Shown here one piece after another: positions 21,172 through 49,560 of a stretch of 64,000 bases of DNA. A program made the translations under genes and the position numbers. Within the stretch, counting starts at the first letter, position 1; every line of letters starts with the position of its first letter. The notes under the pieces were generated by a model, which had not been told where the DNA came from, did no database searches, and worked only from the letters and a program-made list of their open reading frames with translations. Origin of the DNA: Dryococelus australis (lineage: Eukaryota > Arthropoda > Insecta > Phasmatodea > Phasmatidae); assembly GCA_029891345.1 (NCBI GenBank), contig CM057009.1:287008966-287072965 (forward strand), read 5' to 3'.

Positions 21172-22072
21172 ATGTCATTGGTCGAGTGGTCTTTTCCGAA
21201 ATTAAATTTCGAGAATATCAACTGTTGGATTTTCGTGATGATCGACCATAACAGAATCGAACAATTTTAGTTCACGGGGAAAGATATTGCATTGTTTCTT
21301 AAGTACAATAACCCACATAAAGCAATTTTAAAATTTATCAAACCAAAATGGAATAAAACATGGGCAAAATTAAAGGGTACATCTCAATATACCATTGACG
21401 TCCCATCCAACTGGCAATCACATAGAATCTTCATCTCTGAGCCAGGCCTATATGCTCTGGTAACACATTGAAAACTACCAGAAGCTGAAAGATTCACTTA
21501 GTGTGTCTAGGAAGATGTGCTACCTTCCTTGAGAAAGAATGGTCAATACAAAATCGATATGATTAAAAAAGATGAAGAGTTAAAAGAGGTAAACCACAGC
21601 TTACCCGAGTTGATGAAATCATTTATATTAACCAATGAAGAAATTATACTTGCCAGACAAGATTCTGAATAACCTAGACAAGATGCTGTGGTACTTTTTT
21701 CATAGCATCGCCAGCATTGCCAAAGATGTGATCGTCAAACTCAAATCCGATAAATTGTTATACACATTGTCCATGCATGTGCTGGATGAAACAACCAAGA
21801 AATATCATTCACCCAATGTTAACATCGTCCTCGCCCAATCTCTGCAACAGCTCAACAACAAATATCTAAATGCCAGGGAATTGTACAGGAACAGGTACAT
21901 CCCGAGCGACGTGAACATTTTTAATTGCGTGAAAGATTGGCTGAAGGAATCAAAAATACAGTATTCTGCCCGTAATAACATGGTCCACATTTTGGATGCA
22001 ATGGACTCGGAGCATGTTGTATCGTTTGTACGTAACATAATCACATCATCGAAAGTCTTGAATAAAATGTAA
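21172..22072 (+). pseudogene. bro: BRO-family protein (Bro-N domain plus C-terminal part)
   Basis: BRO proteins are DNA-binding proteins repeated in baculoviruses and many other insect DNA viruses. From the ATG at 21172 the frame shows the Bro-N landmarks: FTGKDIALFLKYNNPHKAIL, then RIFISEPGLYALV, KLPEAERF and EDVLPSLRKNGQY. In-frame stops occur at about 21268 (just before FTGKD), after LVTH (TGA), and twice in the segment before EDVLP. A frameshift near 21650 leads into a 145-residue open C-terminal part ending at 22072. Total length of about 300 residues is usual for BRO. It is a dead copy. Confidence 0.85.
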
Positions 22073-22152
22073 TTTGTGCAAAATAAAAAAATACAGTAAA
22101 AATAATAATTACAAAAAAAAAAATTACATAATTTTTTTGCTTATCAGTCATA

Positions 22153-22320
22153 ATGTTGTTGGTCGAACAGCTTTTTCCATTGTCAAACTTCCACAGTTTC
22201 AACTGTTGGATTTTCATACTGGTTAACCATAATGGATTCGAACAATTTGGTTCAAGGGAAAAGTTATAGCATAATTTATTGGATATAAAACTCACATAAA
22301 GTAATTTTAGACCATGTAAA
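22153..22320 (+). pseudogene. partial duplicate of the BRO 5' end
   Basis: This matches 21172-21340 in order and spacing: TTGGTCGA, TTTTCC, TCAACTGTTGGATTTTC, ACCATAA, TTCGAACAATT/ATCGAACAATT and CACATAAAG. It retains the FNCWIFI...NHN.FEQF reading and then stops. It lies about 80 bases after the first copy, so it is a local tandem duplication of the gene start. Confidence 0.75.
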
Positions 22321-22488
22321 ATGTAAATGAATGAAAATGTGGTTTAATTTTGAAGGGAGTGGCTAGATTGTTCCTTTTTCAAAATTCAATTTTGGGTCCC
22401 CAAAATTGACATAATGCCAAAATTCCATTTTTTATATTCCTTTAAAATATCCCTTTAAAATTCAATTTCCCATGAGATTTTGCCAGAA

Positions 22489-22852
22489 GACTCCACAATC
22501 GACATTCCTTTTCCCTCCCCACTCCGACTTTCAACAACCAATCACATTGCAGTATTTCACTTCCCCTCCTTTCAGTCTGGCAAATGTAATGGTGAAATCT
22601 TATATATACATTATAAAAATATATTATTATAGGGTATATTATATCACTATACTTACTCATTATTCCTCTTCTGCTCTTTGAGGAGGATTGATGTTTCCAT
22701 GTTCAGCTCTTGCCTTCTACTGACTTTTTTCCTTCAGATTTTGAGGCCATATAGGCCAAACTGAAAGGAGGGGAAGAGAGGGGAGGTGAAATATTGCAAT
22801 GTGATTGGTTGTTGAAAGTAGGAGTGGGGGGAGAGGGGTTGTGTCGATTACA
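22489..22852. repeat. hr-like long imperfect palindrome, copy A
   Basis: Arms at 22489-22582 and 22755-22852 are inverted copies. Both contain CAACAACCAATCACATTGCA (or its reverse), a TTCACTTCCCC/TTCACCTCCCC block, CTTTCAGT and an ATCGACA end. The spacer of about 165 bases is AT-rich. The same sequence recurs at 36.9-37.4, 37.56 and 48.05 kb, all inside the viral block. Long palindromic repeats spread through a genome are characteristic of viral hrs, which act as replication origins and enhancers in baculoviruses; that role here is inference. A host foldback element is the alternative. Confidence 0.7.
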
Positions 22853-23258
22853 ACACACACAAGTGGATTATCTCTAAACTAATCCATTTTTATAAAAATT
22901 ATTTTTTTATAAATCATTACCTAAGTTACTGATTGGCATGATCGTCGAGTAAACGATTCCTCCAATCACACTCAAAAGGAGAGTAATTTGTTCACTTTCA
23001 ACAACCGTCGCGGCAATATTCGACGACACATGGGGAACGGATTGTTAACATTTTCTGCGAATTTCTCTTTTCGTCCCTGATCCCAACTGCTTGTGACATA
23101 GGTTTTGATTTTTTGCACGATCGGCTCGGAAACATCTCTTGGTAAAAGATTTTTTGAAAACTAATAGTGATAATAAAAGCTTAATTGCAGCTGCAAGTGC
23201 AAGTTTTGTAGTGGCAGGCTAATTGTTTCCATGGGCAAAACGAACTGTGTAGTTCAAA

Positions 23259-23537
23259 TTAATTAATGAATTTAGTTTTGTAGCCGACTTTTATGCCTTT
23301 GGTTTTGTAGAGAACATCGAATCCTTTTAACTGTTTATTGGAGTACTCCGATTCTATCTGGGACTCTGTCACTTGATTATCATAATACCAGTCATTTAAA
23401 ATGAGTTTTGCACCCAAAAATTTTAAACACTTCGAAATCATCCACCCCGATGTATTACCGAGGTCCGAAACAAACAACCAAATAGTGAAATTTATTCTAT
23501 ACAAGTTTGATGGTGATGTAATCATACAATAAGTCAT
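23259..23537 (-). CDS. unrecognised short viral-block protein
   Basis: A 92-residue frame with FVSDLGNTSGWMISKCLKFLGAKL in the middle and a charged tail. Composition is more protein-like than chance frames nearby, and the next gene starts divergently about 200 bases away. No family recognised. It could be the tail of a longer gene whose start was lost in the AT-rich 23540-23700 stretch. Confidence 0.35.
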   Translation of the reverse strand: MTYCMITSPSNLYRINFTIWLFVSDLGNTSGWMISKCLKFLGAKLILNDWYYDNQVTESQIESEYSNKQLKGFDVLYKTKGIKVGYKTKFIN

Positions 23538-23729
23538 TTAGCTAAACATTCCCGTATCACTAATACTTTTTTCATAAGTTTTTTTTGTAATATCTTATAT
23601 ATTACTTGAAATAATATAATGTTTTGTATACATACAAATTTATGCATATATAAAATGACGAAGTCGAAAGCACACTGTTGTTGGGTCACTTGTCGGAAAT
23701 TGTAGAAAGAGAATCCCTCTTTTTTTGCA

Positions 23730-24573
23730 GTGAAATTGCAATTTAAAAAAAAATACATAGATATCCTTCACCTCAATAACATTTTCGACGATTACTCGGA
23801 CGTTGTGTTTGTGAATTGCAATAATGTGGAACTCGAGCCGCATTTGCCCAAAGCATGTTATTACTTGTTTAATTACATTGACAAATCACACTTGGAAATT
23901 CTACTCTCTCCGCACACATCTCGAAACCTGATACTAAACAAGAGTTCGGTTTTACAATTCTGTTTTCTCTTTACAAGTAATTCACACCGTACGTCACCCA
24001 CTGCCATTTCGATTAGATAGTTAATTTCCAAGATATGAAAATACATAATCACGTTTGTTCCCTTTGACGACGACGTGCACGATGCGGAACAAATTATACT
24101 CAAAATGTTGAAAGGTTTTTACCAACGCATCAATATAATGGTCAATTTCGAGTTGAGGAATGATTACTCTGTTCTGCCCCAGATTTCATACTGGTGCTCA
24201 AACAGGGAATTTGAGCACTACCTAAATCTACTCTGTCACGAAGAGGACTTGGTCAACACCCTATTTGAAAATCAACAAAGGAAAAATGCTATTTATTCAC
24301 TCATCTTTACGACAAAACCCCCATTTCTTTACCCAAATATCCATCTTGTCGAAAGGATGCCTACCGATTCCATGCCTCATCGAGAATTAGCTCAGTTGAC
24401 GACAGATCACGATGGTATTCCCACCACCAGCAACTACGACAAGTTGTACCTAAAACGCAATGATCAAATTCCTTCTTTTCTACTAGGAGGGCAAAAAAAA
24501 GTGAAAAAAAAAACCGAAAAATGTATATATATATTATTTTTAATACATACTTGTATTTTAGAAAACATGCAAT
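23730..24573 (+). pseudogene. unrecognised viral gene, two in-frame stops
   Basis: One frame runs from 23730 to 24573, broken only by stops at about 24018 and 24033. The second part (from about 24045) contains PFDDDVHDAEQIILKML and a mostly helical region, ends in a Lys-rich tail and is followed by AT-rich DNA. Unbroken it would be about 280 residues. No domain recognised. The consistent frame across the stops makes a real gene likely. Confidence 0.5.
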
Positions 24574-24641
24574 GACAAACTCCAAAGATTAGTTATCTGT
24601 CGGAAATGTATCTCGATAACTTAGAACAGAAAGTCGTTTAA

Positions 24642-25246
24642 GTGGACCGATGTTTGAGTAAACTACGAAACCTGTTTCTGGAAATTGTAAAAATTGCCAT
24701 ATCGAGAGAGACGACGGCAACCGCATCAGAGACGATCGAGCCAACATCGACTACGAAGGCTACTGCTGAGAAAACGTCTAAAGAGGTTCAAGTGCCAACC
24801 GCCATCGTTGGCGAACCCGTAAAAAAATTAAAAACTAATTACAAATGAAAACGTCCCATAAAAAAAGATGATGGGTCGTCGCCATCAACAACCCAACCAT
24901 CATCACCGGAAGATTCCATCTAGGTCCATCATAGCGGTGAGGAAAATGGTTCCTACAAACAAAAAAGGAAAAAACTTTGAAATATGTGGTTCTGTCCAAA
25001 ACAATCGAGTGAACAGGGAAGCTAGAAAATCAGGATGATCATTTGACTTTTCTCGCAAATGGAACGATCCTGTTGAACGCATCGGAGCGCTCGAGTAAAA
25101 GAAAAGCCATCGATTCGAAATTGGTCAAACAGTTGCTGGCTTCGAAAATTCCTGTAGATTTACATGTCAAGTGTAATGATCAGTACGTAAATGTAGCCAC
25201 TCAAACTGAGAGGGAAGACGAGATTGAAACGAACACACTCGTATGA
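24642..25246 (+). pseudogene. unrecognised Ser/Thr/Lys-rich viral protein, frameshifted
   Basis: The first frame (to about 24930) is rich in Thr, Ser and Glu and ends in basic stretches (KKLK, KRPIKKDDGSS). A shift near 24960 continues in another frame to 25246, with KRKAIDSKLVKQLL and a TQTEREDE motif. Stops at about 24846, 24918 and 25009. The basic, low-complexity makeup suggests a nuclear protein, but nothing more can be said. The next gene starts at 25224 or 25281. Confidence 0.45.
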
Positions 25247-25280
25247 AAATTATGCAATAACCAAAAATAAAAACCAAGCC

Positions 25281-25989
25281 ATGAAATTATCAAAAGTGAA
25301 GACACTCGAACAAAGCGGCCTATTCGTCATCGAATCACTAAAACACACACATTTAATTTCTTGTAAATATCCATACAAAAATAGCGAATCTAGTCTGATT
25401 GAATTCCTTCAGATTCACGAGGATGTGTTGGAAAAAACAGAAAGTTTGTTTTTTGCCGCCTGTCATGAATTTGTCGAGGAAACACACAGTGTTCCGTGTG
25501 GCGAATGCTCGGTCGACTTGAACGGATTCGATCTGTACTGTTACTATAACGGTACTTGTTCGAAATATCACATTTTCGTCATGTTTTCAGACATGGTGAG
25601 ACCCGTGAAGAAAGATTTTTGTTTGACGGCAAATGTCTGTGGTGGGGTGGAAAAATCTGTTCCAAATTCCCTTACTAAATATCCATTTTAAAAATGACAA
25701 TAAAAATCCTCAAAACAATGGCGACGAGAAAGGAAATAAAGATGGTGGCAATCTTACGGATGTAATTAACAATGGTGAAAATAAAACCAACTTGCAATTA
25801 CCAATTTGTCGAGCCAACGAGTTAAGCATCTACACCACCCCACAACTGTTTTTACGAAATTATTTCGAGTGTAACAGAGTGTTGAGGTTATCTGTGAAAG
25901 AGTACGTCAAATGGATTGATTTTCAATTGCACGGATACAAAGAAAATAACAATTACTTTGATGTTTTTGATTATGTACAAAATTTTTGA
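25281..25989 (+). pseudogene. Cys-rich viral protein with a CxxC motif
   Basis: The frame from the ATG at 25281 holds a helix ending in FVEETHSVPCGECSVDLNGF, then several further Cys residues, to about 25680. A frameshift there leads into a second open part (Asn/Gly-rich linker, then a region with FLRNYFECNRVLRL) ending at 25989. A CxxC at the end of a helix is the arrangement in Erv-type sulfhydryl oxidases, including the P33 protein conserved in these viruses, but the rest is too diverged to assign it. Alternative: an envelope protein with structural disulfides. Confidence 0.45.
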
Positions 25990-26433
25990 AAACAGGTTGT
26001 TGTAATTTGACAAAAATTTTTGTAAACTTGCACGAAAATTACTTTGTAGATGAAAATCAAATTAACATTGTCAAGAAAAAAAGAAGGAAATGTAAAAAGA
26101 AAAAATCTATAAATACTGAATTTAAAAAGTATCCACAAAACAAAAGATTTTTTATTTATTGTTTTACCTCATATATTTTAGTAACCTTTATTACTCATAA
26201 CAAAGGGTTAGTTGTGTTTGTAAATATCTTGACTGATATATATATTTATTTATATATTTATATAAGAAGGTATACAAATACCAAAGATGCCCAGGGTAAT
26301 AAATTTCGTATCTCGAGCATTTCATTTTATATTTTCATACTTGTACAAGAATTATGTTTCCATCTGAAATCGTGTGCAAGAGGAGCTTTACTAAAAGCTC
26401 TGCGAACCCGAAATTTTTTAGTTGATGAAAATT
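25990..26433. other. AT-rich stretch with coding fragments
   Basis: Begins with a Lys-rich tail, followed by AT-rich DNA containing tatata runs at about 26237-26265. A peptide starting MPRVINF at 26287 is soon stopped. Probably eroded gene ends. Confidence 0.35.
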
Positions 26434-26721
26434 ATGCTTTCCGATATCGAAGACGGCAGAATATAAGAATTTATCGATAGATTTAACAATAAACCCAAAT
26501 TTGCTTCCCTACATGAATCGCGTAATGAATTTATTTCACAAATGCCTGATTTTCCGCACGACCCTTTAATGAAATTCCTTGAGATTTTCAGCGATCCTGA
26601 TGTTCAGGAAGCACTCAAGACACCTTTTGCAATGATGTTAAAGGTATGCTTGCATCAATTGGAAAATATAAAAATGAATATGAATGGTAATGATGATGCT
26701 GGCGAGTCTCAACTCGAATAG
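26434..26721 (+). pseudogene. short unrecognised viral gene, one in-frame stop
   Basis: From the ATG at 26434 a 95-codon frame has a single TAA (about 26464) and otherwise reads as a helical acidic protein (FLEIFSDPDVQEALKTPFAM) ending with GESQLE at 26721. Family unknown. Confidence 0.45.
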
Positions 26722-26765
26722 AGTATATAAATAAGCTATTTTAAAAAAGAGAGAAATCGCCCAAC

Positions 26766-27674
26766 ATGGACAATCACTTGCTAAATTTATGCAAACTAAT
26801 TTTCATATATCAGTCTAGGGGTAATATCGACGACGTACCCTGTACGAGGTTTATGAAGAATATGGTTTGAAATATTTCGTCACGCGTAATGAGGCCAAAA
26901 CTAAATTTACGAAAATTTTCAACAACTCGATCGTCCAACAAGAGATAAAATCTATCCAATGTTGCCTTGATCGAGAGTAAAATGAGAGGATTTTATAAAT
27001 ATGAAAAGGGATATTCAACACCCCTTCATGCTTGGCAAAAAAAGTTGCTTTGAAGTGCATGTAAATGTCGGTTGCGAAACGATTTGTCTCACACCATGGC
27101 GCTCATGATTCCTGCAGGTCAAAATCAGTTGGTCACGGATATGAAGAAGCGGTATGGTACGACTTGAAGGCGACTATAACATCGAAATTCAACCGGCCAA
27201 GTGGCCAATGTCAGATGTCGGCTCAGTAAAATACCCAAAGGCTATTTCGGTTTTGTTACAGTGCGTTAGAGGCTGGCATTCAAACAACGAATTACGCCTA
27301 TAATGGAAGTTATAGATTCAGTCTACAGAGGAGATATCATTTGGCAGTGGAAAGTCGAGGAAATTCGGCATTCAAAGCAGAAAGAAACTCGTAAAGCTCA
27401 ATACTTATATGCCACATATGATAGTATAGACTGCTTACCGAAAGATAAAAACGATATGGAATTTAGAATTACACGAGGAGCGTCACTGAGATTAGGATTT
27501 CTGCATTCACACCATACAATTCGTACCACTACTACACCACAAAAACATCACAAAATGAAATCGCGGACATTTAGAAGAACCCACCTGGGTGCCATTTTCC
27601 TTTCCCGAACGGCCATCACTTGTCCGCGGCCCAAAAATGCAAGAGTATTTGGTTGGAAATCAAAATCAAAATGA
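26766..27674 (+). pseudogene. unrecognised viral gene broken by several frameshifts
   Basis: Coding-like pieces in all three plus frames follow one another: an N-terminal piece from the ATG at 26766, a piece with EEYGLKYFVTRNEAKTKF (about 26849-26950), one with LEGDYNIEIQPAKWPMSDV (about 27155-27210), and a last open piece of 123 codons to 27674. No family recognised. I treat it as one eroded gene, but two are possible. Confidence 0.4.
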
Positions 27675-27823
27675 ATAAAAATGTGAATGTATTTTATAAA
27701 ATAAAATAAAATAAAGATTAAAAACAAACTATAGTTACTTTGTTTTTTATTCAACCCATTCTGTCTTTATATATAAGGAATTGACCCTTCCAAAATATAA
27801 GAAAATATGGAATATTTAATATA

Positions 27824-28272
27824 TAATGATACAATTTTTTATTTCTTTTAGACAAGGATAATAAACAGTGGTTTAGAGGAAAGTATGCGGCAAAAATTTT
27901 GGAATACAAGGATACTTGCGATGCCGTTCAGAGACACATTCCCATAGATGAACGGACACAGTACAGACAACTCGTATAATCAAATAGTTTACCATCATCG
28001 AGTTATCATGGACATTCGAGAACCATTTTCATCACGGAAATAGGCCTATATAATTTGATTATGAAATCGCGATTGTCGACTGGAAATGATTTTAAGTATT
28101 AAGTAGTGTGCCAGTTTCTACCAACCATTGACAAAACTAGCAACATGTCGGCAGAGGAATCGCAAAAACGATCGCGAACGATTGGAGGGTGAAATCAGAC
28201 GATTGACAAAAGAATTTCAGTTTGAAAAAGAAAAATGTCTGCAATTGGAGAAAACAAAAAAGATAGTATAAT
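27824..28272 (+). pseudogene. bro: BRO-family protein, second locus
   Basis: A second Bro-N domain: QWFRGKYAAKILEYKDTCDA near 27870-27925, then HIPIDERTQYRQL, TIFITEIGLYNLI and SRLSTGNDF. Stops follow RQLV (about 27977) and DFKY (about 28099). The later part becomes a charged coiled-coil-like stretch (QFEKEKCLQLEK) in another frame, ending about 20 bases before the next gene. It is less like the 21.2 kb copy than expected for a recent duplicate, so it is a separate family member. Confidence 0.8.
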
Positions 28273-28292
28273 CATTAGCTCTTTGCAAAATT

Positions 28293-29349
28293 ATGCAAAG
28301 AAAAAATAAATCGGTATTTATAATTTTTTTATTTGCTTTCGCACTATTCATTGTTCAAATTTCCATTCGCATATCGTTGGTGTATAGGCGATCATATTTC
28401 ACGCAAAAAATGCCTAGAATATGGTATGAATTACATTTATGGGTTGACTGGTTTCGAAAAACTACCGACCTTCGTGTTGAAGGAGAATGTGAGTGCAGAT
28501 GACGGTGAAAATGGCGACGAGTTGTTTCTACAAAATAAATGCCGATTCGGCCATTACCTAGGCAATTATGACGATCTGGTATCTTGCACTTCGATTTGTA
28601 ACGACAACAATGGCGAATTCGAATACAAGTTTTTTTTTCGATTGAAATAATCATCAATCACATGTCATATCGAGGTGCCTACTATATGCCTTCGGAAGCA
28701 GCCACTTGTAATCCCCATCTGGGTAAAATAATTTACGTTGATGACTAATACATTTGCCTTCCGCGCCATCCGCACTTGTTTGGAGGGATCGGTTCCAACC
28801 TGATTGTCGGTTGTAATGGATCGATAGCGGATAGAGCGACGGATATAACGTACACCGATATGGTACCCAGCACGTTTAGGATAGAGGATGTGGACGAAAA
28901 ATTAGATAATGGTGATAACCAGATCATGTGCGCTGAGCAATCAGACCCTTTACGAAATCGATTGATGCTGCTGAATAATGGATCGCAGTTCGAGTACATG
29001 TCAAATAAATGTGCTTCGATGATATACAATGTACCTGAAAACATGATGCCCGATTACTCCACCGGTAATTGTGACTGAGGCCCGCACATTTTAAGCTTAA
29101 ATTCCGACACCAAACTTCCATGTGCGAAATGCGTTTCGAAATTGGCTGGGAAGTTACCCGACCATACAAGGAGCCCAATATGCGTTTAGTATAGCACACT
29201 TGTGCATTAATCTAAATACCAGTAATTCATTGTACAAGCAATTAAAAATACCTTGCTCTTTCGACACAATTAAGGACCCTGCAAAAAATTCACGCATACG
29301 TGCAATTTTACTAGCGACTAATGCCTACAGTCCATTAGCTATAAAATAA
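28293..29349 (+). pseudogene. pif-2: per os infectivity factor 2-like protein
   Basis: PIF-2 is an envelope protein of the complex that baculoviruses and relatives use to enter gut cells. Visible here, in order: an N-terminal membrane anchor (residues 8-30 from the ATG at 28293), a Cys block with VSCTSICND, a PRHPHLFGG segment, AEQSDPLRNRL, and a C-terminal block with STGNCD-stop-GPH and PCAKC. The order of Cys blocks and the anchor fit PIF-2. The TGA at about 29076 replaces a residue where a Cys is expected. Other breaks: frameshifts near 28375, near the T-run at 28635 and near 29130, and a TAA at about 28748. About 350 residues is the usual size. Confidence 0.75.
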
Positions 29350-29485
29350 TGTTGAAACAAAAATTAAAAAAAAAATAAACAAAAATATTGAAATGAATAC
29401 ATAAAAAATCATAAAAAGAAAAAAGAAAATATTTAGATTAATAAATATAATTTTTTTTTTTTTAAACTTTGCTCGAGAAAGCAGC

Positions 29486-29522
29486 TATAAAAGAGGAGGT
29501 TTATTGTTGTTACTTTATCAGT
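29486..29522 (+). promoter_or_regulatory. TATA box plus arthropod initiator
   Basis: TATAAAAG at 29486-29493 is followed 32-34 bases later by TCAGT at 29518-29522, the arthropod initiator also used by baculovirus early genes (CAGT). The first ATG of the next gene is at 29545, giving a leader of about 25 bases. Confidence 0.6.
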
Positions 29523-29544
29523 CGCTCAGAAGAAACTCGGCACG

Positions 29545-37625: not shown

Positions 37626-37626
37626 G

Positions 37627-39441: not shown

Positions 39442-39498
39442 ATGTGGCAATGTAATATGCATATATGATGAAAATTGTAATCACGAATCAACAAGTCG

Positions 39499-39678: not shown

Positions 39679-39688
39679 CTCGAGTAAA

Positions 39689-40457: not shown

Positions 40458-40722
40458 CGAGGAATTGATAGTGGCAAATGACCGTCGGTTGCTAATGGGA
40501 GACGACGATGGTGGTTATTGCGAGGAAGGTTTGGTAAAGTCATCCATCAGATCGACCGAGTACCGGTTTGGATTTGAATATGTTACTGCGTATTTCGTCG
40601 CGTGTGGTGATGGAGAAATTACTCACAAAATTGAAAATTGCCAAATTAAACTAGTTGTAAAGTCCGACCACGGCCACACAATCCCTCTCGTTGTAAATGA
40701 AAGCCTGCTCCATGCGGTATAA
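40447..40722 (+). CDS. unrecognised frame overlapping the DNA polymerase end
   Basis: A 91-codon frame with its own ATG overlaps the previous gene by 11 bases and the antisense end of the DNA polymerase by about 70 bases. Since that stretch also encodes exonuclease motif III of the polymerase on the other strand, the tail of this frame is probably junction sequence. It may be the continuation of the previous gene after another shift. Confidence 0.3.
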   Translation: MRNDEELIVANDRRLLMGDDDGGYCEEGLVKSSIRSTEYRFGFEYVTAYFVACGDGEITHKIENCQIKLVVKSDHGHTIPLVVNESLLHAV

Positions 40723-42161
40723 AATGATAGAGTCTGCATTTGTTTCACCCGTAAGTTTACACCAAATGCTACCACCAATGTACTCGATGTGGGGCACTTG
40801 CATGTTTGTGTATTGAGCGTTCACTGCATCAAACTTTTCTTTTTTGTAGGACTCGATGTGAAAGATATTTCTCATACGCTCGTGACGAAAGTCATCGTTT
40901 GTGATGGTGTCATCTAGAATATAATAAATTCGCATAAGCACAAAGTTCAAATCGATTTTCTTAAACTTTTGGCTTAGATAGTTTTTAGACAGGTGCCCAA
41001 ACGAAAAATTCCCACTAGCCAATGCATTTTTTTTTTCAAGATTGTCAACATATCGAATATGACACAGTCGTGGTGAAAACGAATGAGTGGAGCTGTGGCT
41101 AATTTTCCGAGGGTTATAAATGCTTTTGTTTCGCGTTGCATATTGAGAACCTGCAAGAGAGTCAATATGAATTTCAAATCGTATTTGATAATGTTATGGC
41201 CGACGAAATAATGTGGGTAATTTTGGTATCCCGTTAGTATTTTCAGCAAGTATCCCTGACTATACCAAAAGAGAAAACTAGTAATGAGATCCTCTTCATG
41301 AGAGAAACCTTGGACCCAAATGCATTTCGAGGGCTGTCCTTCGTATTTCTTCCGCATTTCCACATCGAAATCATTGGGTTTGCCGCGACATTTTAGGTAC
41401 AAAATTATACTAACGTCAACATCCAGATACTCACAATAGAGCACAAACATGAGCAGTTTTTCTGGAGCGAGACACCCAGGGGCAAGTCTTCCAAATTATC
41501 CACACCCGTCTCGATGTCGAAGCTCACGACAGAAATGTACTTGTACAAATGAGTGTAATCGTAAGACGTTTCCAGGATCAGATGCTTAGACTCGGTGACT
41601 GAGTACACGCCATTTGCACGAAATATATTTTCCACCATGAGATTACCGACTCCATGTTTCGGTCTACGAAATCTTAGTTTTGCAAGTTGATTCAATTTGA
41701 TGGATGAATTTTGCAGTATCCCCTCTGAAATTACAGTGTCGATGTACAACTCCATTTGCAACATGAAATGCACATGAGTCAACTGAATGGTAAAGTAATA
41801 TTTTTTTTCACAATTACTTTCCACGAGAAATTTGTAGACTGTAATTTTGCGTCAAAATTTCCAGCAACGAGTTTGAATTAGTTTCCAGAGAGATTGTCGT
41901 GTTGGCGATTGAATCGATATGTTGTTCATATAACTCAATCAGCAGTTGGCACATTTCGTATTTCATGTTTTCAGCAACTAGATAGTATATTGGGAGGGGG
42001 TAAGTCAAAATTTCTTGACGCCTCTTCATCGTTTTGACATCGATACCCACCACATTTAGCTGATTGTTGTAGATGAAAGACCTCGATATAAATATTTTAT
42101 TTTGTAGATTTAAAGAACTTGGAGCGATAAATTTTTTTGTTATATAAGAACCTTTAGTCAT
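40651..42161 (-). pseudogene. dnapol: family B DNA polymerase, N-terminal and exonuclease part only
   Basis: Reading the minus strand from the ATG at 42161, three open pieces joined by shifts near 41815 and 41430, and again near 41000, show the three 3'-5' exonuclease motifs in order: FDIETG (41510-41521), GHNIIKYDL (41178-41201) and YNERDC (40681-40695). This is the replicative polymerase type used by large nuclear DNA viruses. After motif III a TAG (40651) ends it, and the palm with the YGDTDS-type site is missing. I did not find the missing half elsewhere in the window. The gene therefore lost its polymerase domain by rearrangement or truncation. Confidence 0.8.
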
Positions 42162-42594
42162 GGTTAACGAACTAAGTTTTACAATGACCAGAGTATTGAA
42201 AATATTCAAAAATATCTACAACGACCCTAAACTGCAAACTTTGGATGGATTTAAACGGTTTTACACGTATTTTGGCAACGGTCACTTGGAATGCATTTAC
42301 ACTTGTGAAAATAACAATGACAAAAACTCTGACAAAGATTTCGAAGAGTAATTTGATACTAATCTTAATAATAATACTTACATTCCATTAAAGTTTAAAT
42401 ATTTTCGAGCCAAGTTCCCAAACACCACACTCGAAGACTATCTATACGTCAAACAACTGTCGTCCTCTCGCACTTCTGAAATTAACTCGAAAGATCATCT
42501 AGTCTTGCTACAAAAACTGTTACTTTCACAATACACCATCGAGGGAACAGCGACTCTTTATATACCTTGTGGTAAACTAAAACAAAAGAAATAA
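42160..42594 (+). pseudogene. unrecognised viral gene with one in-frame stop
   Basis: One frame from 42160 (or ATG 42184) to 42594 with a single TAA at about 42349, 144 codons. Contains YFGNGHLECIYTC and KFPNTTLEDYLYVKQL. A TATATAAG at 42141-42148 precedes it. It starts within the same CATG as the divergent DNA polymerase and its stop overlaps the next ATG (TAATG). Not recognised. Confidence 0.5.
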
Positions 42595-43220
42595 TGAATC
42601 GTGTTTCCTTTGCAGAAAAAAAAAACGAAATTGACAACCAACATCGGCTTTCACTCACGTGCAAGTACAAAAATGCTATTCATGGTTCATCACAAAGCTG
42701 CTCCCTGATTTATGATTCCAATCAAACTACGATTGAACAACCATATCATACGACGGGAATGACAAGGAACAAGGACGGCACTCCTCTATTCACGAAATCG
42801 AAATTACACAATGTGTTTGTATACGAATGTAATCGCAACTCTATTCGAGGATCGGTTAAAGTCTCAATACCACCTAATGCCCTATCTTTAAACGAACACT
42901 TGACATCAGTATTGAGATTTGTACATTTAGTTGATAGCCTACTCCAATCGGGAGACTACAAATACAACCAGTTTAAAGAGTACATAAGTGAAAAAAATTT
43001 ATCTGATGTATACTTTGTACCTAAATTGGAAAACTTTGATACTCTGTTTTTCAGACCGTTTTTTTTTTTCACTCTCGCTATAGAAGAACATGCCGCTAGT
43101 TGGAGAAGTGTATTCTTTCAATTGCTCGATATTTATGCGGGAAATATGAAAACTGAATTTACAACTTCTGTAAAAACAAAAACTGCTACGTCGTGTGGCA
43201 TAAAACATTTTGTCAAATGA
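42594..43220 (+). CDS. unrecognised 208-residue viral protein, open frame
   Basis: An unbroken frame from ATG 42594 to 43220. The N-terminal half is polar with YHTTGMTRNKDGTPLF; the C-terminal half holds a long helical region (ISEKNLSDVYFVPKLENF) and a hydrophobic stretch (FRPFFFFTLAI). Its start overlaps the previous stop in a TAATG arrangement, typical of compact viral genomes. Family unknown. It is one of the longest intact frames of the block. Confidence 0.6.
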   Translation: MNRVSFAEKKNEIDNQHRLSLTCKYKNAIHGSSQSCSLIYDSNQTTIEQPYHTTGMTRNKDGTPLFTKSKLHNVFVYECNRNSIRGSVKVSIPPNALSLNEHLTSVLRFVHLVDSLLQSGDYKYNQFKEYISEKNLSDVYFVPKLENFDTLFFRPFFFFTLAIEEHAASWRSVFFQLLDIYAGNMKTEFTTSVKTKTATSCGIKHFVK

Positions 43221-43276
43221 CCAACTCATAATCTTGGCATGTTCAATGAAGAGTAACCGTGCACACACTTTACAAA

Positions 43277-43604
43277 ATGCAAGTGACTTTCAATGTGTCG
43301 CGTTACCATAAATTCAGATACAATCGGACAAATAATCACTCAAATAATCACTTCCCAAATTCACGAATCATGAATGCGATTTGCAATCGCGTTTTACAAG
43401 CTCAGATAGAAAATATTGGAGAAAAGGATCTGGCCAAAATATAAGAACATTCTTGTTATTTCGAACCTCATTTGACATGAGCTATTTACAATGTGTTTGG
43501 TCGTTCCAACAAAATGCACACTTTATTTTGCTCGCCAAACATTTTTTTAAATTCAGTTTGGTTAAATGAGTTTAAACACTTTATTCAACTTCAAAGAGTC
43601 AGAT
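43277..43604 (+). pseudogene. short unrecognised viral gene with two stops
   Basis: Same frame from ATG 43277 to about 43604 with stops near 43442 and 43478. The N-terminus is basic and Asn-rich (KFRYNRTNNHSNNHF). About 109 codons. Not recognised. Confidence 0.35.
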
Positions 43605-44630
43605 GATTACTGAAGATAATGTAAAAAATAAAAAATAATTTTTAAAAAATAAATAACATTTATTTTTAAATAATTTAAATATAAAAAGATAAAAAATATA
43701 AAATATAATAATTATATAAAAAGACATTTAATATACATCAAATTAATGAACTCCATACTTTTCAGATTCCCACTCATCAGGACCCTGGCCATCCACCCCG
43801 CAATATATAATTCTTGCATATGGGCTTGCTTTGAAAAATAATCTACACTTTGTGAGTAAATACAATGTAAACACTTATTTTCCCACACCACTTTATCCCC
43901 ACCACAACCTCTATGTGGCTCAAATTTGGTTAAGAGAGGTGGTTGGGGTTATGGTAGGAACTGGTGGTGTGGGGAGTGCGATGGGATCTGCCACTGTTGA
44001 ATGGAAATTAGAGAAGTCTGGATACATGCAAAATATTTGTCTACCCATGCGATCGTCCTTACATTGCATATAATGGATTTTGGGACTTCAGGCTGCTGGG
44101 GCTGTGGTGGTTAGAGTTACTGCATCTGGAACTCCTTCTGGGGTTGTAACTCTTGCTGGAGGTGGAACTCTTGGAACTCCTACTGAGGTTGGAACACTGA
44201 CTCTAGACCAAAGTGCGTGGTGTTTATATACACACCGAGTAAATTTTTTATTTCGTATTTCAGGGTAGTGGGGAAGGAGGATTACTCTGTAAGCGAGTTT
44301 TTATTACTTTACACATTATTATATTAATTTTTTTTTCGCATTGGCGTATCCGATACGCACTCGCTCACTCAAAGTCATGACTAGTGTTTGTATATGGGCC
44401 GGTGAGGCGACTGGCATACATTACTCAACTTGGCCTCATTATTATGCGGGAATTATCTCGCTACAGAAATAATTTTTTTACAATGCAAAAAGGAGGTTTC
44501 TCCTCACGTTTCCCCCTCCCCCAATTCTACCTTCTAACATTTATTTTTTCTTCTAGTGTCCTGGGTAGGAGACAGAGTATGACCTAGTAAGAGCCAGAGT
44601 ATTTTTTCTCCAAGTGTTCCAGCCGAAGTC
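43605..44630. other. AT-rich and repetitive non-coding stretch
   Basis: 43620-43740 is almost pure A/T. From 44090 to 44210 GGAACTCCT and GGTGGAACTC-like units repeat, opening Gly/Thr/Val-rich frames on one strand and Gln/Pro-rich frames on the other; none is a supported gene. A 61-residue frame at 44080-44268 is such a by-product. Confidence 0.5.
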
Positions 44631-44634
44631 AGAG

Positions 44635-44678
44635 TATATAAGCAGTGACCTTTGCGACAAACAACATCAACCATCAGC
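44635..44678 (+). promoter_or_regulatory. TATA box upstream of the repetitive gene
   Basis: TATATAAG at 44635-44642, with CATCA/ATCAG initiator-like sites 28-38 bases downstream (44664-44678). The first downstream ATG is at 44725. Confidence 0.5.
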
Positions 44679-44724
44679 CGATAAACCAACAGTGCATTGT
44701 GTGCAGTGATTGCCAGTGGCCGAG

Positions 44725-45385
44725 ATGCCAATCTTTGATGCTAATGATGCAGTCGTCTATGTCGAGGAGGCTATCAACATCAGTGACGAAGGCGCCATCG
44801 AGGGGGCGAACACCTTCGAGGTTGAAGAGGCAAACGCCTTCGACTTTGAAGAATTTGGCATCTTCAACTTCGAAGATCTCGTCGCCCTTTATGCCGAAGG
44901 CGCCATCTTCTTCAATGCCGAGGATGTCATGCTCTTCGACGCCTAAGAGGCCATCTCCTTCGATGCCGAAGAAGTCATCCCCCTTGATAATGAAGAGGCC
45001 ATCCCCTTCAACGCCGATGATGTCATGCTCTTTGAAATCGAAGAGGTCATCTTTCACGCCGAAGATCTCATCACCTTCGACGTCAAGGATTCCGTCTCCT
45101 TCGATGCTAAGGATGCCATCTCCTTCAACATCAAGGATATCATCTACTTATCAGAGAAGGAGGATGAGGCCATTTAAAAGAAGGAATTTACCTTCAGCAC
45201 CTTCAGCATCTTTGCCACCACCACCCTCTGCTGGTGCGCATGTAATGGGAACGGCACCTCCCGCACCAACTATGATGCTGCCTGGAGGGTTTATGCAGAT
45301 ACCATTACAGGTACCTTTGTCCCTCCAGGTATTTCATTCTGTTTTAAGGCTGCTTATTTCAGTAATAGGACTGTCAATACAGTAA
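44725..45385 (+). CDS. repetitive gene open in two overlapping frames (Ser/Pro/Lys/Arg-rich or acidic)
   Basis: A region of roughly 24-27-base repeats reads in two plus frames. From ATG 44738 it gives an unbroken, very basic Ser/Pro/Lys/Arg protein (RPSPSMPKKSSPL, RRRMRPFKRRNLPS) with a Pro-rich end, to 45385. From ATG 44725, the first after the TATA box, it gives an acidic repeat protein (AEDVMLFDA) with one stop at 44944 and then open to about 45177. The minus strand is open too. The basic product resembles protamine-like DNA-packing proteins of these viruses (P6.9 type) in composition. The acidic frame is favoured by the promoter. I cannot decide which is real. Confidence 0.45.
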
Positions 45386-45632
45386 CAATTACTAATAAAA
45401 ATAAATAATAATTTTTTTCAGTCGTGTTTCATCTCTGTATTCCATAATAAGATGTTTTTAATTCTTTTACAGCTAATGTTATTGATATTGGTTTTAATAA
45501 CAGAAACGTTTTAAATGCACCCAAACATGAACATTTTGTAAAACGTCTAGAAATATTTAATCAGTCTCACCACCCTTGCCATCTCCGTCTCTTCAGTCGT
45601 CGCCGACAACCGAATATAATTCCAACCATTAA

Positions 45633-46079
45633 ATATATTTTTATTTTGGTTTCAAAAATAACTTTGTAATCCATCACTCCGTCAATTTTTGTTTTCATTG
45701 TAATGTGAAGTCTGTTGACAAATTTAAATGGAAAGAGCTTTCGCGAAACTTGTACGTAAATTTTAATTTTACCAGTACGAAACACGACATGCTGTCTTTA
45801 GCATTTGATGATATTTCGGTAAAGATATTCAATTTATACAAAAATGACTACGTTATATATTTCGCCCTAATAAACATCGTCAACGAGTCGAAATGGACTT
45901 TGAATTCTGCCTTTACGATATTTCAAAATATTGCCCAACAACTCGCAATGGATGTGGCTCGAGACACGGAGATTCCTCTCTTCAAGAGCGCGGTGTTTTT
46001 CGCAATGGAAAAACATAAATATATGGATCCTTTGATGGAAATTTTACGATTGAATAACGTGTTTACACATTTCGATTAA
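45633..46079 (+). CDS. unrecognised viral protein, open frame
   Basis: Open from just after a TAA at 45630 to TAA 46077-46079, about 148 codons, but without an early ATG (the first in frame is near 45789), so the true start may be upstream in another frame. Helical, with NIVNESKWTLNSAFTIFQNI and FFAMEKHKYMDP. Not recognised. Confidence 0.45.
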   Translation: MYFYFGFKNNFVIHHSVNFCFHCNVKSVDKFKWKELSRNLYVNFNFTSTKHDMLSLAFDDISVKIFNLYKNDYVIYFALINIVNESKWTLNSAFTIFQNIAQQLAMDVARDTEIPLFKSAVFFAMEKHKYMDPLMEILRLNNVFTHFD

Positions 46080-46093
46080 AAGAAATACGATAG

Positions 46094-46366
46094 CTTCGTG
46101 TGCCTACACTCGACTTTTGGCCACTTTAAAAGATTCCGTCGACGAGAACGGCGTGTTATTTAAGTTTTGCGGCGGTGGCCGAGTCTTGCTGGAAATGGTA
46201 ATCATAAAACCTTCGGCTCCCCTTACGGCGAAAGTGATGAGAGTGGCTATGTGGAGGATGGTACCCTTATTTTATTCGATAATGATACCGAGATTGGCCC
46301 TACAAGACAAAAAACAAACAATGTAATTATTTCTAAGAAACAAAACCCTCTGAGAAGTAATCTTTA
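46094..46366 (+). pseudogene. short unrecognised viral gene, frameshifted
   Basis: One frame gives LATLKDSVDENGVLFKFCGGG (46117-46185) and the next, after a shift near 46190, GSPYGESDESGYVEDGTLIL to 46366. About 90 residues, acidic C-terminus. Not recognised. Confidence 0.4.
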
Positions 46367-46409
46367 ATTTGTAACTAAAGTAGAAAACAAATATATAGAT
46401 AAAATAAAA

Positions 46410-46957
46410 ATGGACAGTGTTGAAAAAATCGCAAAAATGGTAGGCCACGGTCAAAATACTGATATTTCATCAATTTTTTTTTTGGAAATTGAATATTACA
46501 AACAGGTGATGAAAATACTGGATTGTATGAACGAGTCTATAGATTTCGCCTTAAACATCTTGTACTCTCACGAATTTACGAAAAAATATTTAATTAAGAC
46601 GAGTTTACAAAATTGGAAATTGATACCTTTCTAAATCAAGTCCAGCGAAACAAACAATCGTTGCACAAACTCGTCAAACTAAAAACCAAAGTGGAAAACA
46701 AATCATTTCAACTGGTATTTCTTCAGAAATTGTACGAATTGGCTCAAATAGATGCAAGCATTAATCCCGAAGAGTTTTACTTGAAATTACTAAACATTAT
46801 TCACGTAAACAATATACAGGTGGGTATTGCGTCAGAAGTCGTACTCTATAAGATTTTTGCGATGGTTACCTGCATGTCTACGAAAATTCCCTATATACTT
46901 ACTTATACTCTGGCAGACGTTATGCGAATCATCAACAGCATTGCACTGAATGGTTAA
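46410..46957 (+). pseudogene. unrecognised helical viral protein, one frameshift
   Basis: ATG 46410 opens 74 codons; a shift at about 46615 enters a second frame that runs to 46957. Together about 182 residues, strongly helical, with MVGHGQNTDISSIFFLEI and LKTKVENKSFQLVFLQKL. Only one lesion is needed to explain both frames, so decay is slight. Family unknown. Confidence 0.5.
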
Positions 46958-47057
46958 AACAGTCCAACTAAACTCGTGTTTACAGACCACTATATGAATA
47001 TTGATCATAAGAAACAAAAACAAAAAAATACATGTATTACATAGTTTATAACAAAAA

Positions 47058-47174
47058 GGGGGGATTAAACCACCTTCCAAATATAATTTTTTTTAAGGTG
47101 ATTCAGTCCAAGGGAGGTAGTTCCGGTTGCCTCAAAAAAATTCAATTTATTTGGAAGGTGATTTATTCCCCTCC
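47058..47174. repeat. short palindromic element
   Basis: Left arm GGGATTAAACCACCTTCCAAAT (quoted in part; 47058-47083) and right arm ATTTGGAAGGTGATTTATTC (47149-47174) are inverted copies, with AT-rich DNA and a GATTCAGTCCAAGG core between. Non-coding, between two plus-strand genes. Confidence 0.7.
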
Positions 47175-47264
47175 TCCCCTTAAAAAATAAAATGTTGACC
47201 CCCCCTCCCCCTGGTTTCAAAAAATATTTTTGCAACGATTCCTATATATTGAATTGCAAACATT

Positions 47265-47946
47265 ATGCGAAACATCAGTAATACGGTAACCATTGCGTTT
47301 ATAATACGATATTACGACGAAGCTCACAACTTGATCAGTATTTTAACCAAACCTTTCGATCGAAACATTGTAATGTATGGTACGAATGAGGAACATCGAG
47401 AATTGGCTTCGGAACTACCTTGTGGGGTTCCGAATTATTATCGGTGTTGCATAAACTCGTACTATACTCACGAGTCGGAAAATCATGTACAACACTGCAA
47501 CGGAGCTGAACAATTTATGTATTGTAAACATCCAGCGATGCATTTTAGCATTCCCTGCAATGCCAAATGCGAAACGTATTCGAAAACTGTCAAATGGGAA
47601 GAAATACATTATTATAAACTTGATTGGCAAAGTTATCGAAACCATGTACATTAAAATTGACCGAAAGAAAGAATTGCCATGTGGTTATACGTATATGAAT
47701 TGCGACACTCATCGGGATTCGCAAAATTGCGCTGTAGTAATTGAAACCATGTAACGACACGAAAGAGAAGAGCGCGTTACATATTGTGATCAACTTAGGC
47801 ACATTAAGGTATGTAAGGATCCAGTACGTCCCTCCAAATGTTTGTGGAGTGAACATGCAAACTGTCAACACAAACAACAATGTAATTTATCGAGTAATAA
47901 ACACGAGTTGATGAAAACTATAAAATATCACCAATTTAAATTTTAA
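47265..47946 (+). pseudogene. Cys-rich viral protein with an internal repeat
   Basis: ATG 47265 opens 129 codons (ELPCGVPNYYRCCINSYYT, then CKHPAMHFSIPC). The frame at 47652-47946 reads a second, similar block (ELPCGYTYMNCDTHRDSQNC, then CKDPVRPSKCLW) with one TAA at about 47752. The blocks share the order PCG, C, C, C-K-x-P, C, C, so this looks like two copies of a small disulfide-rich module, as in chitin-binding-like or envelope proteins. Lesions: a shift near 47640 and one stop. Not assigned. Confidence 0.5.
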
Positions 47947-48049
47947 AAATGTGTATTTTTTTACCAAAAGAAATTGCCACTTTGTTATGTGTGTTTTTCT
48001 CATTTATCCAATTCTCATTCAGTTTGTTTAGTTTTGGAGACTATTTACC

Positions 48050-48140
48050 AGAGTGCTCCACGATCGACATGACATCCCCCTCTCCTCCAATTTATTCAAC
48101 AACCAATCAGAGTACACCATTTTATTCCCATTTTTTTTCA
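48050..48140. repeat. hr-like half-arm, copy D
   Basis: CTCCACGATCGACAT, CCCTCTCCTCC, TTCAACAACCAATCAGAGTA and a TTTTTTTCAGCTGGTG end match the left arm of copy A in the same order and spacing. No inverted partner is visible. A 129-codon frame (47949-48338) passes through it but is probably chance. Confidence 0.65.
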
Positions 48141-48300
48141 GCTGGTGAATATTGGTATCGAGATTCGAACCCAAATTGCTGCAAAAATATCCAAAAGTTT
48201 GTCACTCGTTACAAAAAAATCAAAACTTTTTATTTTATATGTTTTGTTATAAGTTGGCCTGTTATTATATCGAGCAACTTAATGTTAAACTTTAAATTCT

Positions 48301-49510
48301 TTAGAAAATGTTTCCATAAACTGTTCGTTTTCCTTTAATTGTTCTATGATTACCTCCACTATACAGCCGTGCTCGCGAATTATCGTAAAAGAGTCTTGCA
48401 TAAACGAAAACTAGGTATATTAACTTTTGGAATATGTTCAAACACCGATCTTTTTTTGCGCTTATCGTTCGAAAACCAAAGGCGAGGAAATGACCATAAA
48501 CGATTGCCAGCTTCCGGGACCGGTCGTTTTTCCCACAGAAAATGAACGGGAAAATTCGTTGATTGAAGTCGTCAAATTGGAGTTTTTCGTTGACGGGTTC
48601 GATTAGGAGCGGTAAATAATTTCTGTTTCTATCAAATAGATTTGTGCACAAGCCGTGTACTTGGTCTGTTGTAATTGACATTTTGGCCCGAGGTCCGAAT
48701 AGTTTCCGGTAAACGCCATTGCAGCGTCGGTAAAATAATTTGTTTACGTTTAGTGTGGACGCTTCACCGTCGTCGTGTCTGAGTAGAGGTGAACTGTAAT
48801 GCTCAAAGATGGCGTCAGGTTTGAAGACGTTTTTCACAAATATCAACAAATTGCACAAAACATCGTCCGATCCCGGCGTATTTTGTGCTTCGGGACTCGC
48901 GGGAGAATCGTTTTACTTCTGCACCTCTACGTGTGTATGTTCGGCAAGCGCGAACGCTAGGTAGAAACCCATCACTGGTACAAACAATATATACAAAAGC
49001 GAGCGTACCTGATCAAATGCAGTCATGTAGAATCAGAAAATTAATTTGACCAGGGAAACCATGTTTACTTGTTTGGGTTCTTCCACGAGCCTGAATACAT
49101 CTCGAGTAATGTCTTCGATAATTTTCGGTGATTAGTTCGTCAGGTAATTCGCAATAATTTGGTTTTGTTGGTTTATTATCCCCGAATGTTCGCCCATCCA
49201 TTTTGGAAGAATTTTAGACGTATCGTAAAAACAACTTTTCGTAGAATTGTTTAGATCTTGAACTATGAATAAAATGGAATCGATTTTGAGTTTCGGGTTG
49301 AGTTCCAACAGAGTTTCGTAGTTGATTATACTATCGAGTAGAAACAATTTGATTTTGACAATTTTATAAACGTTTTTACATCGTACGTGAAAATGATATT
49401 GACGTTTGAAAGATTATACTCTCGAATATCCAACAGTTAAATGTATTCGTCGCTCAATTTATCGTATTTTTTACTTACTGAGTTTGAATCGACTGGTTCC
49501 TTCAAATGAA
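48301..49510 (-). pseudogene. unrecognised viral membrane-associated gene, three stops and shifts
   Basis: The minus strand reads one protein from about 49510. A first piece with LSDEYI-stop-LLDIREYNLSNVNII shifts frame near 49350 into a long frame: KIDSILFIVQDLNN, stops at about 49131, 49026 and 48920, a hydrophobic segment RSLLYILFVPVMGFYLAFAL (about 48960-49010), then HYSSPLLRHDDGEAS and LLIEPVNEKLQFDDF. It ends at about 48301, possibly after another shift near 48500. Around 400 residues with one membrane helix in the middle. I could not match it to a core gene. Confidence 0.5.
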
Positions 49511-49560
49511 AAATTTATAAAAATCATTCAAGACAATGTCGATAGTAGGAGCTATTTGGG

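What the first reader, a model, noticed from the sequence alone, without database searches (positions are those of the whole stretch)
21172..49560. A 28 kb endogenous large DNA virus of the baculovirus/nudivirus group in an animal chromosome
Seen: dense intronless genes, BRO, PIF-2, LEF-9, PolB exonuclease and dUTPase signatures, with stops and frameshifts. Known: PIF and LEF proteins belong to arthropod nuclear DNA viruses. Inferred: an integration, possibly of an undescribed lineage, because most of the roughly 25 genes match no family I recognise.
Basis: partly seen in the sequence, partly recalled or inferred. Interest (0 to 1): 0.95.

Follow-up and report, generated by a model that had tools for sequence, protein, structure and literature searches.

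The report
Insect genome littered with ancient virus
A 28-kb stretch of a large insect chromosome is one decayed copy of a big DNA virus related to baculoviruses, and the same genome holds over a hundred scattered places with the same viral genes, which seem to have spread in one ancient burst.

Summary
The block at about 21.2-49.72 kb is a decayed, partly deleted copy of a large arthropod DNA virus of class Naldaviricetes in an animal chromosome. In the window Pfam finds BRO clearly, PIF-2 and the PolB exonuclease just below their cut-offs, and a weak dUTPase; LEF-9 was not found. The block is not a lone integration. The host assembly (3.415 Gb, 17 large contigs) rings for PIF-2 at 39 places and for P74 at 145. 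Copies compared are about 79-92% alike in DNA, and two trees (9 and 10 copies) are stars, 97-98% of length in terminal branches. Twelve of 67 PIF-2 places have P74 within 60 kb (0.34 expected), all upstream and on the other strand: one virus with a fixed gene order integrated repeatedly. Other copies carry parts the window lacks: P74, LEF-4, ODV-E66, IAP, PIF-1, the polymerase part of PolB. One copy has terminal direct repeats and another joins the two 'ends', as permuted integration of a circle would give. LEF-4 and ODV-E66 point to order Lefavirales; the family could not be placed. Size and chromosome number fit the stick insect Dryococelus australis (inference). How it spread stays open: independent germline integrations or a self-spreading element.

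The parts
21212..49724 (.). endogenous naldavirus copy (truncated, internally deleted)
   Evidence: 25,436 of 28,525 bases of 21200-49724 match L011-L044 at 1e-20; 39 of 39 other places found with 49200-50300 stop matching at 49722-49725 (40 of 4354 candidates scored); left edge by a 166-bp, 75% match
21271..21468 (+). BRO N-terminal domain piece
   Evidence: Bro-N 6.7e-13, 49.5 bits
21632..22069 (+). BRO C-terminal-like (DUF3627) piece, weak
   Evidence: DUF3627 0.023, below cut-off
28324..28647 (+). probable N-terminal part of PIF-2 in another frame (inferred from position)
   Evidence: adjacent to the PIF2 piece; no Pfam match itself; third-codon-position excess between copies
28749..29075 (+). 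PIF-2 middle part
   Evidence: PIF2 PF04631 2.6e-5, 23.7 bits, cut-off 25, model 195-266
29671..30168 (+). unknown viral ORF piece, 166 aa
   Evidence: mismatches 107/102/171 on codon positions 1/2/3 over 7 copies; no Pfam match
30581..31850 (-). tandem ORF pieces with similar N-termini, one with a C-terminal hydrophobic stretch
   Evidence: translations, likeness by eye
33178..33194 (.). likely internal deletion point: the three other copies read hold about 2.1-2.4 kb here (Polinton not counted)
   Evidence: L026:3250-5632; L020:4691-6748; L013:4286-5782 plus L012:435-1258
39000..39266 (+). dUTPase-like piece, weak
   Evidence: PF00692 0.011, below cut-off
40654..42215 (-). N-terminal half of a family-B DNA polymerase in overlapping frames; polymerase part missing
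   Evidence: DNA_pol_B_exo1 1.1e-3, below cut-off, at 40977-41495; two exonuclease motifs; the collinear X copy goes on into L040:2628-3503, DNA_pol_B 5e-5, 22.7 bits, cut-off 23
42576..43217 (+). unknown viral ORF piece (214 aa; a 305-aa open frame in copy L039:9026-9940)
   Evidence: no convincing Pfam match
48304..48912 (-). unknown viral ORF piece (203 aa; a 464-aa open frame in copy L039:1830-3221)
   Evidence: no Pfam match
49724..49725 (.). right virus/host junction
   Evidence: the C1 and X copies continue with shared sequence past this point (L022:8710-9999 = L039:1915-601)
13070..20037 (+). LTR retrotransposon left of the block (not viral)
   Evidence: LTRs 83% identical over 1,333 aligned positions; RVT_1 1.5e-17 and Integrase_H2C2 5.3e-11

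Best explanation
The block is one fossil copy of a large circular DNA virus of class Naldaviricetes, most likely order Lefavirales. In the germ line of an ancestor of this insect, closely similar genomes of this virus entered the chromosomes over a hundred times in a short period. Shown: many dispersed copies, one gene order where PIF-2 and P74 lie together, star-like trees, decay by stops, frameshifts, deletions and nested transposons. Inferred: the virus replicated as circles in germ-line nuclei, and circles or concatemers opened at different points were built into chromosomes, which gives permuted copies with unfixed ends and terminal redundancy. After the burst the copies drifted mostly neutrally. 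The window's copy was cut at about 21.2 and 49.72 kb and lost internal pieces, including the polymerase part of PolB. It is not expected to make virus today.
For: Viral genes in the window. PIF-2 at 39 places (104 candidates scored), P74 at 145 (150 of 380 candidates scored), 0 of 14 control genomes each. A 951-bp PIF-2 stretch: 39 other places among 40 scored of 284 candidates, 85-88% alike to the window. X and C2 copies collinear with the window in the main; the C1 copy matches too but with inverted blocks. P74 within 60 kb of 12 of 67 PIF-2 places, 0.34 expected; all 12 upstream at 11-41 kb and on the opposite strand. Terminal branches hold 97% (9 PIF-2 copies) and 98% (10 P74 copies) of tree length. 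No shared right flank: 39 of 39 other places stop at 49722-49725. Permutation: the C1 copy runs past the window's right edge into sequence matching the opposite end of the X copy (L042:506-2003 = L016:5181-3667); the X copy has direct terminal repeats (L043:3645-5000 / L016:3667-5097, 81.6%), about as diverged as the same stretch in the unlinked C1 copy (79.7-80.4%). Lefaviral genes in other copies: LEF-4 4.3e-6, above cut-off; ODV-E66 1.6e-20 to PDB 3vsm; P74 7.8e-18.
Against: LEF-8 and LEF-9 were not found, though the same tool also missed LEF-4, which is there. Four of eight ORF pieces tested show a third-position excess (28324-28647 p 6e-5; 29671-30168 p 8e-6; the 464-aa ORF p 8.5e-3; the 305-aa ORF p 0.048; p-values overstate, since copies share one query), so part of the divergence may have arisen under selection, which fits a less simple burst. 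15 of 39 PIF-2 matches hold no stop in the matched stretch. Only three copies were read at length, so circularity rests on two junctions, and L016:3148-3667 at the X copy's right end shows no clean match to the other copies. No target-site duplication is known for the virus; beyond a look at the window's edges none was sought. Two P74 places can belong to one integration, so 145 is not a count of events. No phylogeny against known families was possible.
Confidence: 0.62

Rival explanations
1. The virus was a giant transposable element: an endogenous lefavirus copied itself from chromosome to chromosome with its own recombinase, as proposed for endogenous nimaviruses of crustaceans.
For: High copy number and star trees. 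A possible tyrosine recombinase in other copies: Phage_integrase 0.047 at L028:8003-8527, and an ALGHSKKMSTLNY motif at L022:259-636 read by eye against a recalled pattern. Endogenous nimaviruses reach hundreds of copies and carry integrases (PMC10871703, passages).
Against: The recombinase match is below cut-off and L022:259-636 gives no Pfam match. The copies read so far have different ends. Integrase genes occur in lefaviruses other than baculoviruses and serve excision in bracoviruses (PMC12548425, passage), so one here would not prove transposition.
Confidence: 0.25
2. One integration was multiplied by segmental duplication or by host transposons.
For: Many copies of near-equal divergence; large repeat-rich genome.
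Against: 39 of 39 other places lose the match at the window's right junction (40 of 4354 candidates scored); copies have different extents and rearrangements. The left-junction search did not complete.
Confidence: 0.08
3. Assembly artefact: free virus contigs joined into host scaffolds.
For: None found; no reads were available.
Against: Diverged copies on 16 of the large contigs, and two Polinton insertions into viral copies with 6-bp target duplications, each with its empty site in one other copy.
Confidence: 0.01
4. The family is a nimavirus relative, not a lefavirus.
For: High-copy endogenous naldaviruses are known from nimaviruses (PMC10871703, passages); PIFs and PolB occur in both; LEF-8 and LEF-9 not found.
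Against: LEF-4 at 26.3 bits against a cut-off of 20.2; LEF-4, -8 and -9 homologs are not found in nimaviruses (PMC10271883, passage). ODV-E66 matches the baculovirus protein.
Confidence: 0.08

Closest known systems
Order Lefavirales (Baculoviridae, Nudiviridae, Hytrosaviridae, Filamentoviridae)
   Same: P74, PIF-1, PIF-2, PolB, LEF-4; ODV-E66, IAP and BRO also occur in baculoviruses (recalled); a NIF-type phosphatase that may be 38K (recalled link)
   Different: integrated at over a hundred places; LEF-8 and LEF-9 not detected; no relatives found in IMG/VR for three query proteins by a search that reaches close relatives only
Endogenous nimaviruses of crustaceans (PMC10871703, passages)
   Different: those insert into telomere repeats, microsatellites or 28S rDNA with an integrase, and nimaviruses lack LEF genes; here LEF-4 is present and ends look unfixed
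PoFV-related elements of Platygaster orseoliae (PMC10259472, passages)
   Same: naldavirus-derived elements in an insect genome, 139 EVEs of which 104 are putative paralogs
   Different: wasp, filamentous-virus lineage, possibly domesticated; here many copies of long stretches, often broken, in a likely stick insect
Labial gland disease virus EVEs in ants (PMC12548425, passages)
   Same: a new lefaviral lineage with relatives in insect genomes
   Different: 1 to 37 viral homologs per scaffold over many ant species; no burst of long copies in the passages seen
Polinton/Maverick elements
   Same: present nested inside two of the copies
   Different: a separate element with its own inverted repeats and 6-bp target duplication

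Membership tests
Naldaviricetes | pif genes (pif-0/p74, pif-1, pif-2) | tested here: met
   PIF2 2.6e-5 in the window, just below cut-off, over cut-off at 39 genome places; P74 7.8e-18 in L029; PIF (PIF-1) 2.9e-8 in one of 146 pieces of other copies, place not resolved
Naldaviricetes | DNA polymerase B | tested here: met
   exonuclease part 1.1e-3 in the window (below cut-off) with two motifs; polymerase part 5e-5 in L040 (22.7 bits, cut-off 23)
Naldaviricetes | circular genome | tested here: inconclusive
   end-to-end join in one copy and terminal repeats in another; three copies only
Naldaviricetes | p33 sulfhydryl oxidase, pif-3, pif-5 | tested here: inconclusive
   no match shown among pieces scanned (5 of 30 families were not shown); viral map not fully covered
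Lefavirales | lef-4 | tested here: met
   26.3 bits, cut-off 20.2, L016:1013-1429; one piece of another copy, not the window
Lefavirales | lef-8 and lef-9 | tested here: inconclusive
   0 matches in the genome, but the tool also returned 0 for LEF-4; no positive control
Baculoviridae or Nudiviridae | 38k, vp39, p6.9, vlf-1, phylogenetic position | tested here: inconclusive
   NIF 3.5e-5 at L024:7628-8233 could be 38K (recalled link); no references for a tree, protein database switched off
Nimaviridae | PIFs and PolB without lef genes | tested here: not met
   LEF-4 piece present
Domesticated viral element (bracovirus type) | viral genes kept intact by selection in the host | tested here: inconclusive
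   24 of 39 PIF-2 matches hold a stop in the matched stretch; substitutions near-equal over codon positions, 2053/2067/2315, but excess at position 3 in four of eight pieces; expression not testable
Polinton/Maverick | terminal inverted repeats, 6-bp target duplication, DJR capsid in the block | tested here: not met
   no DJR or other Polinton Pfam match in the window block; found as nested elements in two other copies

The most novel reading that the evidence does not exclude
An insect lefavirus became a giant selfish element: it persisted as circles in the germ line, inserted itself hundreds of times in one episode, and left tens of kilobases per copy, with a surplus on the X chromosome, so that a measurable part of a giant insect genome is dead virus.
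Probability: 0.3. Interest if true: 0.92.

Novelty: new variant of a known kind. Interest (0 to 1): 0.8.

Why it matters
Reported lefavirus-derived elements in insect genomes are mostly one or a few copies per gene (from the passages seen and recall). Here one lefavirus-like genome has left 145 P74 places in one genome with the signature of a single burst. That gives a dense fossil record of one virus at one time, makes it testable whether such viruses integrate by chance or by their own machinery, and offers a source for part of the unclassified repeats reported for the likely host. It also suggests that high-copy endogenous naldaviruses are not confined to crustacean nimaviruses.

Tried and rejected
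LEF-9 in the window: Pfam on 281 pieces and a motif scan, nothing. LEF-8, LEF-9 and LEF-4 in the whole genome: 0 each; since a LEF-4 piece does exist, these zeros carry little weight. Relatives in IMG/VR: PIF-2 piece, P74 and ODV-E66 gave none; a LEF-9 motif scan gave two contigs, judged chance from their translated context. PDB: PIF-2 piece two chance-level matches (0.65, 0.67); P74, NIF piece and PolB piece none at 0.1. Cornifin, HemeBinding_Shp and similar weak Pfam matches were taken as chance or composition. Double jelly roll, PLA2, A32 and endonuclease VII matches were set aside as Polinton genes; only the endonuclease piece (L028:2042-4192) is placed by a call, the rest is inferred. Host first guessed as a cockroach from recall; dropped for Dryococelus after PMC10268593 passages. 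Never answered: left junction, the search past the right edge with L022:8300-9500, PIF-1 in the genome. No structure prediction was run.

Rows dropped or not looked at: L014 was left out of the tree because it overlaps L004. PIF-2 places within 2 kb were merged, 79 to 67. Blast rows under 80 or 150 bases were not shown. Of 202 pieces listed, 146 were scanned; of 107 listed. In one search some copies count twice, because L004/L013-14, L008/L019-20 and L009/L025-26 overlap.
Full report
What was checked. The window is G000:C17:287008966-287072965 in an assembly of 3,415,067,245 bases and 646 contigs. In 20.5-50.5 kb I scanned all 281 stop-to-stop pieces of at least 47 aa against Pfam and 30 pieces one by one. 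The block holds a BRO N-domain (21271-21468 +, 6.7e-13), PIF-2 (28749-29075 +, 2.6e-5), a PolB exonuclease domain (40977-41495 -, 1.1e-3, with two exonuclease motifs) and a weak dUTPase match (39000-39266 +, 0.011). Only the BRO match is over its curated cut-off. LEF-9 is not there by these tests. Left of the block lies an LTR retrotransposon with LTRs 83% alike.

It is a repeat family. PIF2 rings at 39 places of the genome, all over the cut-off, and in 0 of 14 control genomes. P74 rings at 145 places, with 150 of 380 first-look candidates scored, again 0 of 14 controls. A 951-bp stretch around PIF-2 was found at 39 other places among 40 scored of 284 candidates, 85-88% alike to the window. 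Eight PIF-2 loci (L003-L010) align with the window over 1.8-3.8 kb at about 82-84%. Three copies were read in pieces of at most 10 kb (X: L011-L016, L039, L040, L043; C1: L017-L022, L042, L044; C2: L023-L028, L041). The X and C2 copies are collinear with the window in the main; the C1 copy matches it with two inverted blocks (L019:2462-1474 and L020:4685-1247). Blocks of 1 kb or more are mostly 79-87% alike, one in a repetitive stretch 71%. Of 28,525 bases in 21200-49724, 25,436 match L011-L044; right of the block 0 of 14,276 do.

One virus, one gene order. Merging the PIF-2 places gives 67. Twelve have a P74 place within 60 kb, where 0.34 is expected if P74 places were spread evenly; in all 12 P74 lies 11-41 kb upstream of PIF-2 on the other strand. 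So P74 belongs to the same viral genome, in a part that the window's copy has lost: its left edge is about 7.5 kb upstream of PIF-2. The window has probably also lost about 2.1-2.4 kb at 33178/33194 and the polymerase part of PolB, which the X copy still holds (L040:2628-3503, DNA_pol_B 5e-5).

Gene content of the other copies (146 of the 202 pieces of at least 90 aa listed, scanned; 10 of 107 pieces listed, scanned; single checks): PIF-1 2.9e-8 (one piece, place not resolved), LEF-4 4.3e-6 (L016:1013-1429), ODV-E66/lyase (L023:3533-4696; 1.6e-20 to the solved E66 protein, PDB 3vsm), two BIR stretches (L012:291-971, 5.8e-21), an AAA ATPase (L015:2566-3081, 8.3e-13), a PD-(D/E)XK nuclease (L015:3712-4260, 1e-6), a NIF-type phosphatase (L024:7628-8233, 3.5e-5) and P74 (L029:1375-2331, 7.8e-18). 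A tyrosine recombinase is only a lead: 0.047 at L028:8003-8527 and a motif seen by eye at L022:259-636, which Pfam does not support. Double jelly roll, A32, PLA2 and endonuclease VII matches most likely belong to Polintons of 13.0 and 14.4 kb nested in the X and C2 copies. The X one is flanked by AAGGTT and the C2 one by GTATTG; the empty site of the first is seen in the C2 copy and that of the second, with one mismatch, in the X copy.

Tempo. Trees of 9 PIF-2 and 10 P74 copies have 97% and 98% of their length in terminal branches of 0.05-0.10 substitutions per site. Between window ORF pieces and loci L003-L028, mismatches fall 2053, 2067 and 2315 on codon positions 1, 2 and 3 (overlapping loci and overlapping frames counted). 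In eight single tests P74 (p 0.22), the PIF-2 middle piece (p 0.10), E66 (p 0.6) and the LEF-4 piece (p 0.41) show no significant excess, while 28324-28647 (p 6e-5), 29671-30168 (p 8e-6), a 464-aa ORF (p 8.5e-3) and a 305-aa ORF (p 0.048) do; these p-values overstate, since each copy is compared with the same query. Most divergence therefore seems to have arisen after integration, with some earlier or continued selection. With an insect rate near 3e-9 per site per year (recalled, not from a call) the branches would mean roughly 16-34 million years.

Structure of integration. The C1 copy continues past the window's right edge and into sequence matching the far end of the X copy (L042:506-2003 = L016:5181-3667). 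The X copy carries this stretch at both ends in the same orientation, 81.6% alike; the same stretch in the unlinked C1 copy is 80.4% and 79.7% alike to them. This is what permuted integration of a circle or concatemer would leave. In one search, 40 of 4354 candidates were scored, and all 39 places other than the window stop at 49722-49725, so none of them shares the window's right flank; this speaks against segmental duplication, at least for this copy. Left junction and past-edge searches did not complete.

Host. C1 403.5, C2 376.2, C3 373.0 and C17 326.6 Mb; all matches listed lie on contigs 1-17. The published Dryococelus australis assembly is 3.42 Gb with 17 major scaffolds, N50 262 Mb, L50 5, and Scaffold_4 as X (PMC10268593, passages). 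In that paper 1.56 Gb of repeats were unclassified; 'viral' occurs once in its text, in a passage I did not see. The authors mention indel errors from long reads, so some frameshifts may be assembly errors if this is that genome.

Literature. Ten searches showed no paper on endogenous naldaviruses of stick insects among the rows listed, which in several searches were a small part of the hits; the library holds open-licence PMC papers only. Passages seen: PMC10271883 (core gene table: LEF-4, -8, -9 in Lefavirales, not in Nimaviridae), PMC10871703 (endogenous nimaviruses as giant transposable elements, sometimes hundreds of copies), PMC12548425 (ant viruses and EVEs), PMC10259472 (wasp EVEs), PMC13108252, PMC10268593. 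No paper was read whole.

Verdict. Membership in Naldaviricetes is well supported, Lefavirales probable, family open.

Noticed in passing
G000:C17 (whole genome): Viral places are over-represented on contig C17 (likely the X): 38 of 145 P74 and 20 of 67 PIF-2 places against 9.6% of the bases (binomial p 7e-9 and 3e-6). Cause unknown: preference, retention or assembly.
   Followed up: partly
L012:1259-L013:4285 and L027:1783-L028:6218: Two Polinton/Maverick-like elements (13.0 and 14.4 kb) nested in viral copies, inverted repeats beginning AGTAGTATA, 6-bp target duplications AAGGTT and GTATTG; one holds a 717-aa open frame with an endonuclease VII match (L028:2042-4192).
   Followed up: partly
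G000, P74 matches: Many weaker P74 matches stop near model position 165 instead of 195, often in open frames; possibly a second lineage or a shared frameshift.
   Followed up: no
36887-37400 and 22618-22860: AT-rich repeated stretch found many times within and between copies, with an inverted repeat at 22497-22849; could be a viral repeat region or a small host transposon.
   Followed up: no
13070-20037: LTR retrotransposon with RT and integrase domains and LTRs 83% alike, so of an age perhaps similar to the viral copies.
   Followed up: partly
30581-31850 -: Tandem ORF pieces with similar N-termini.
   Followed up: no
L022:8930-9622 -: A 231-aa frame with a GHYLGG motif that looks like a lipase (LCAT 0.041, below cut-off), just past the window's right edge in the C1 copy.
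   Followed up: no
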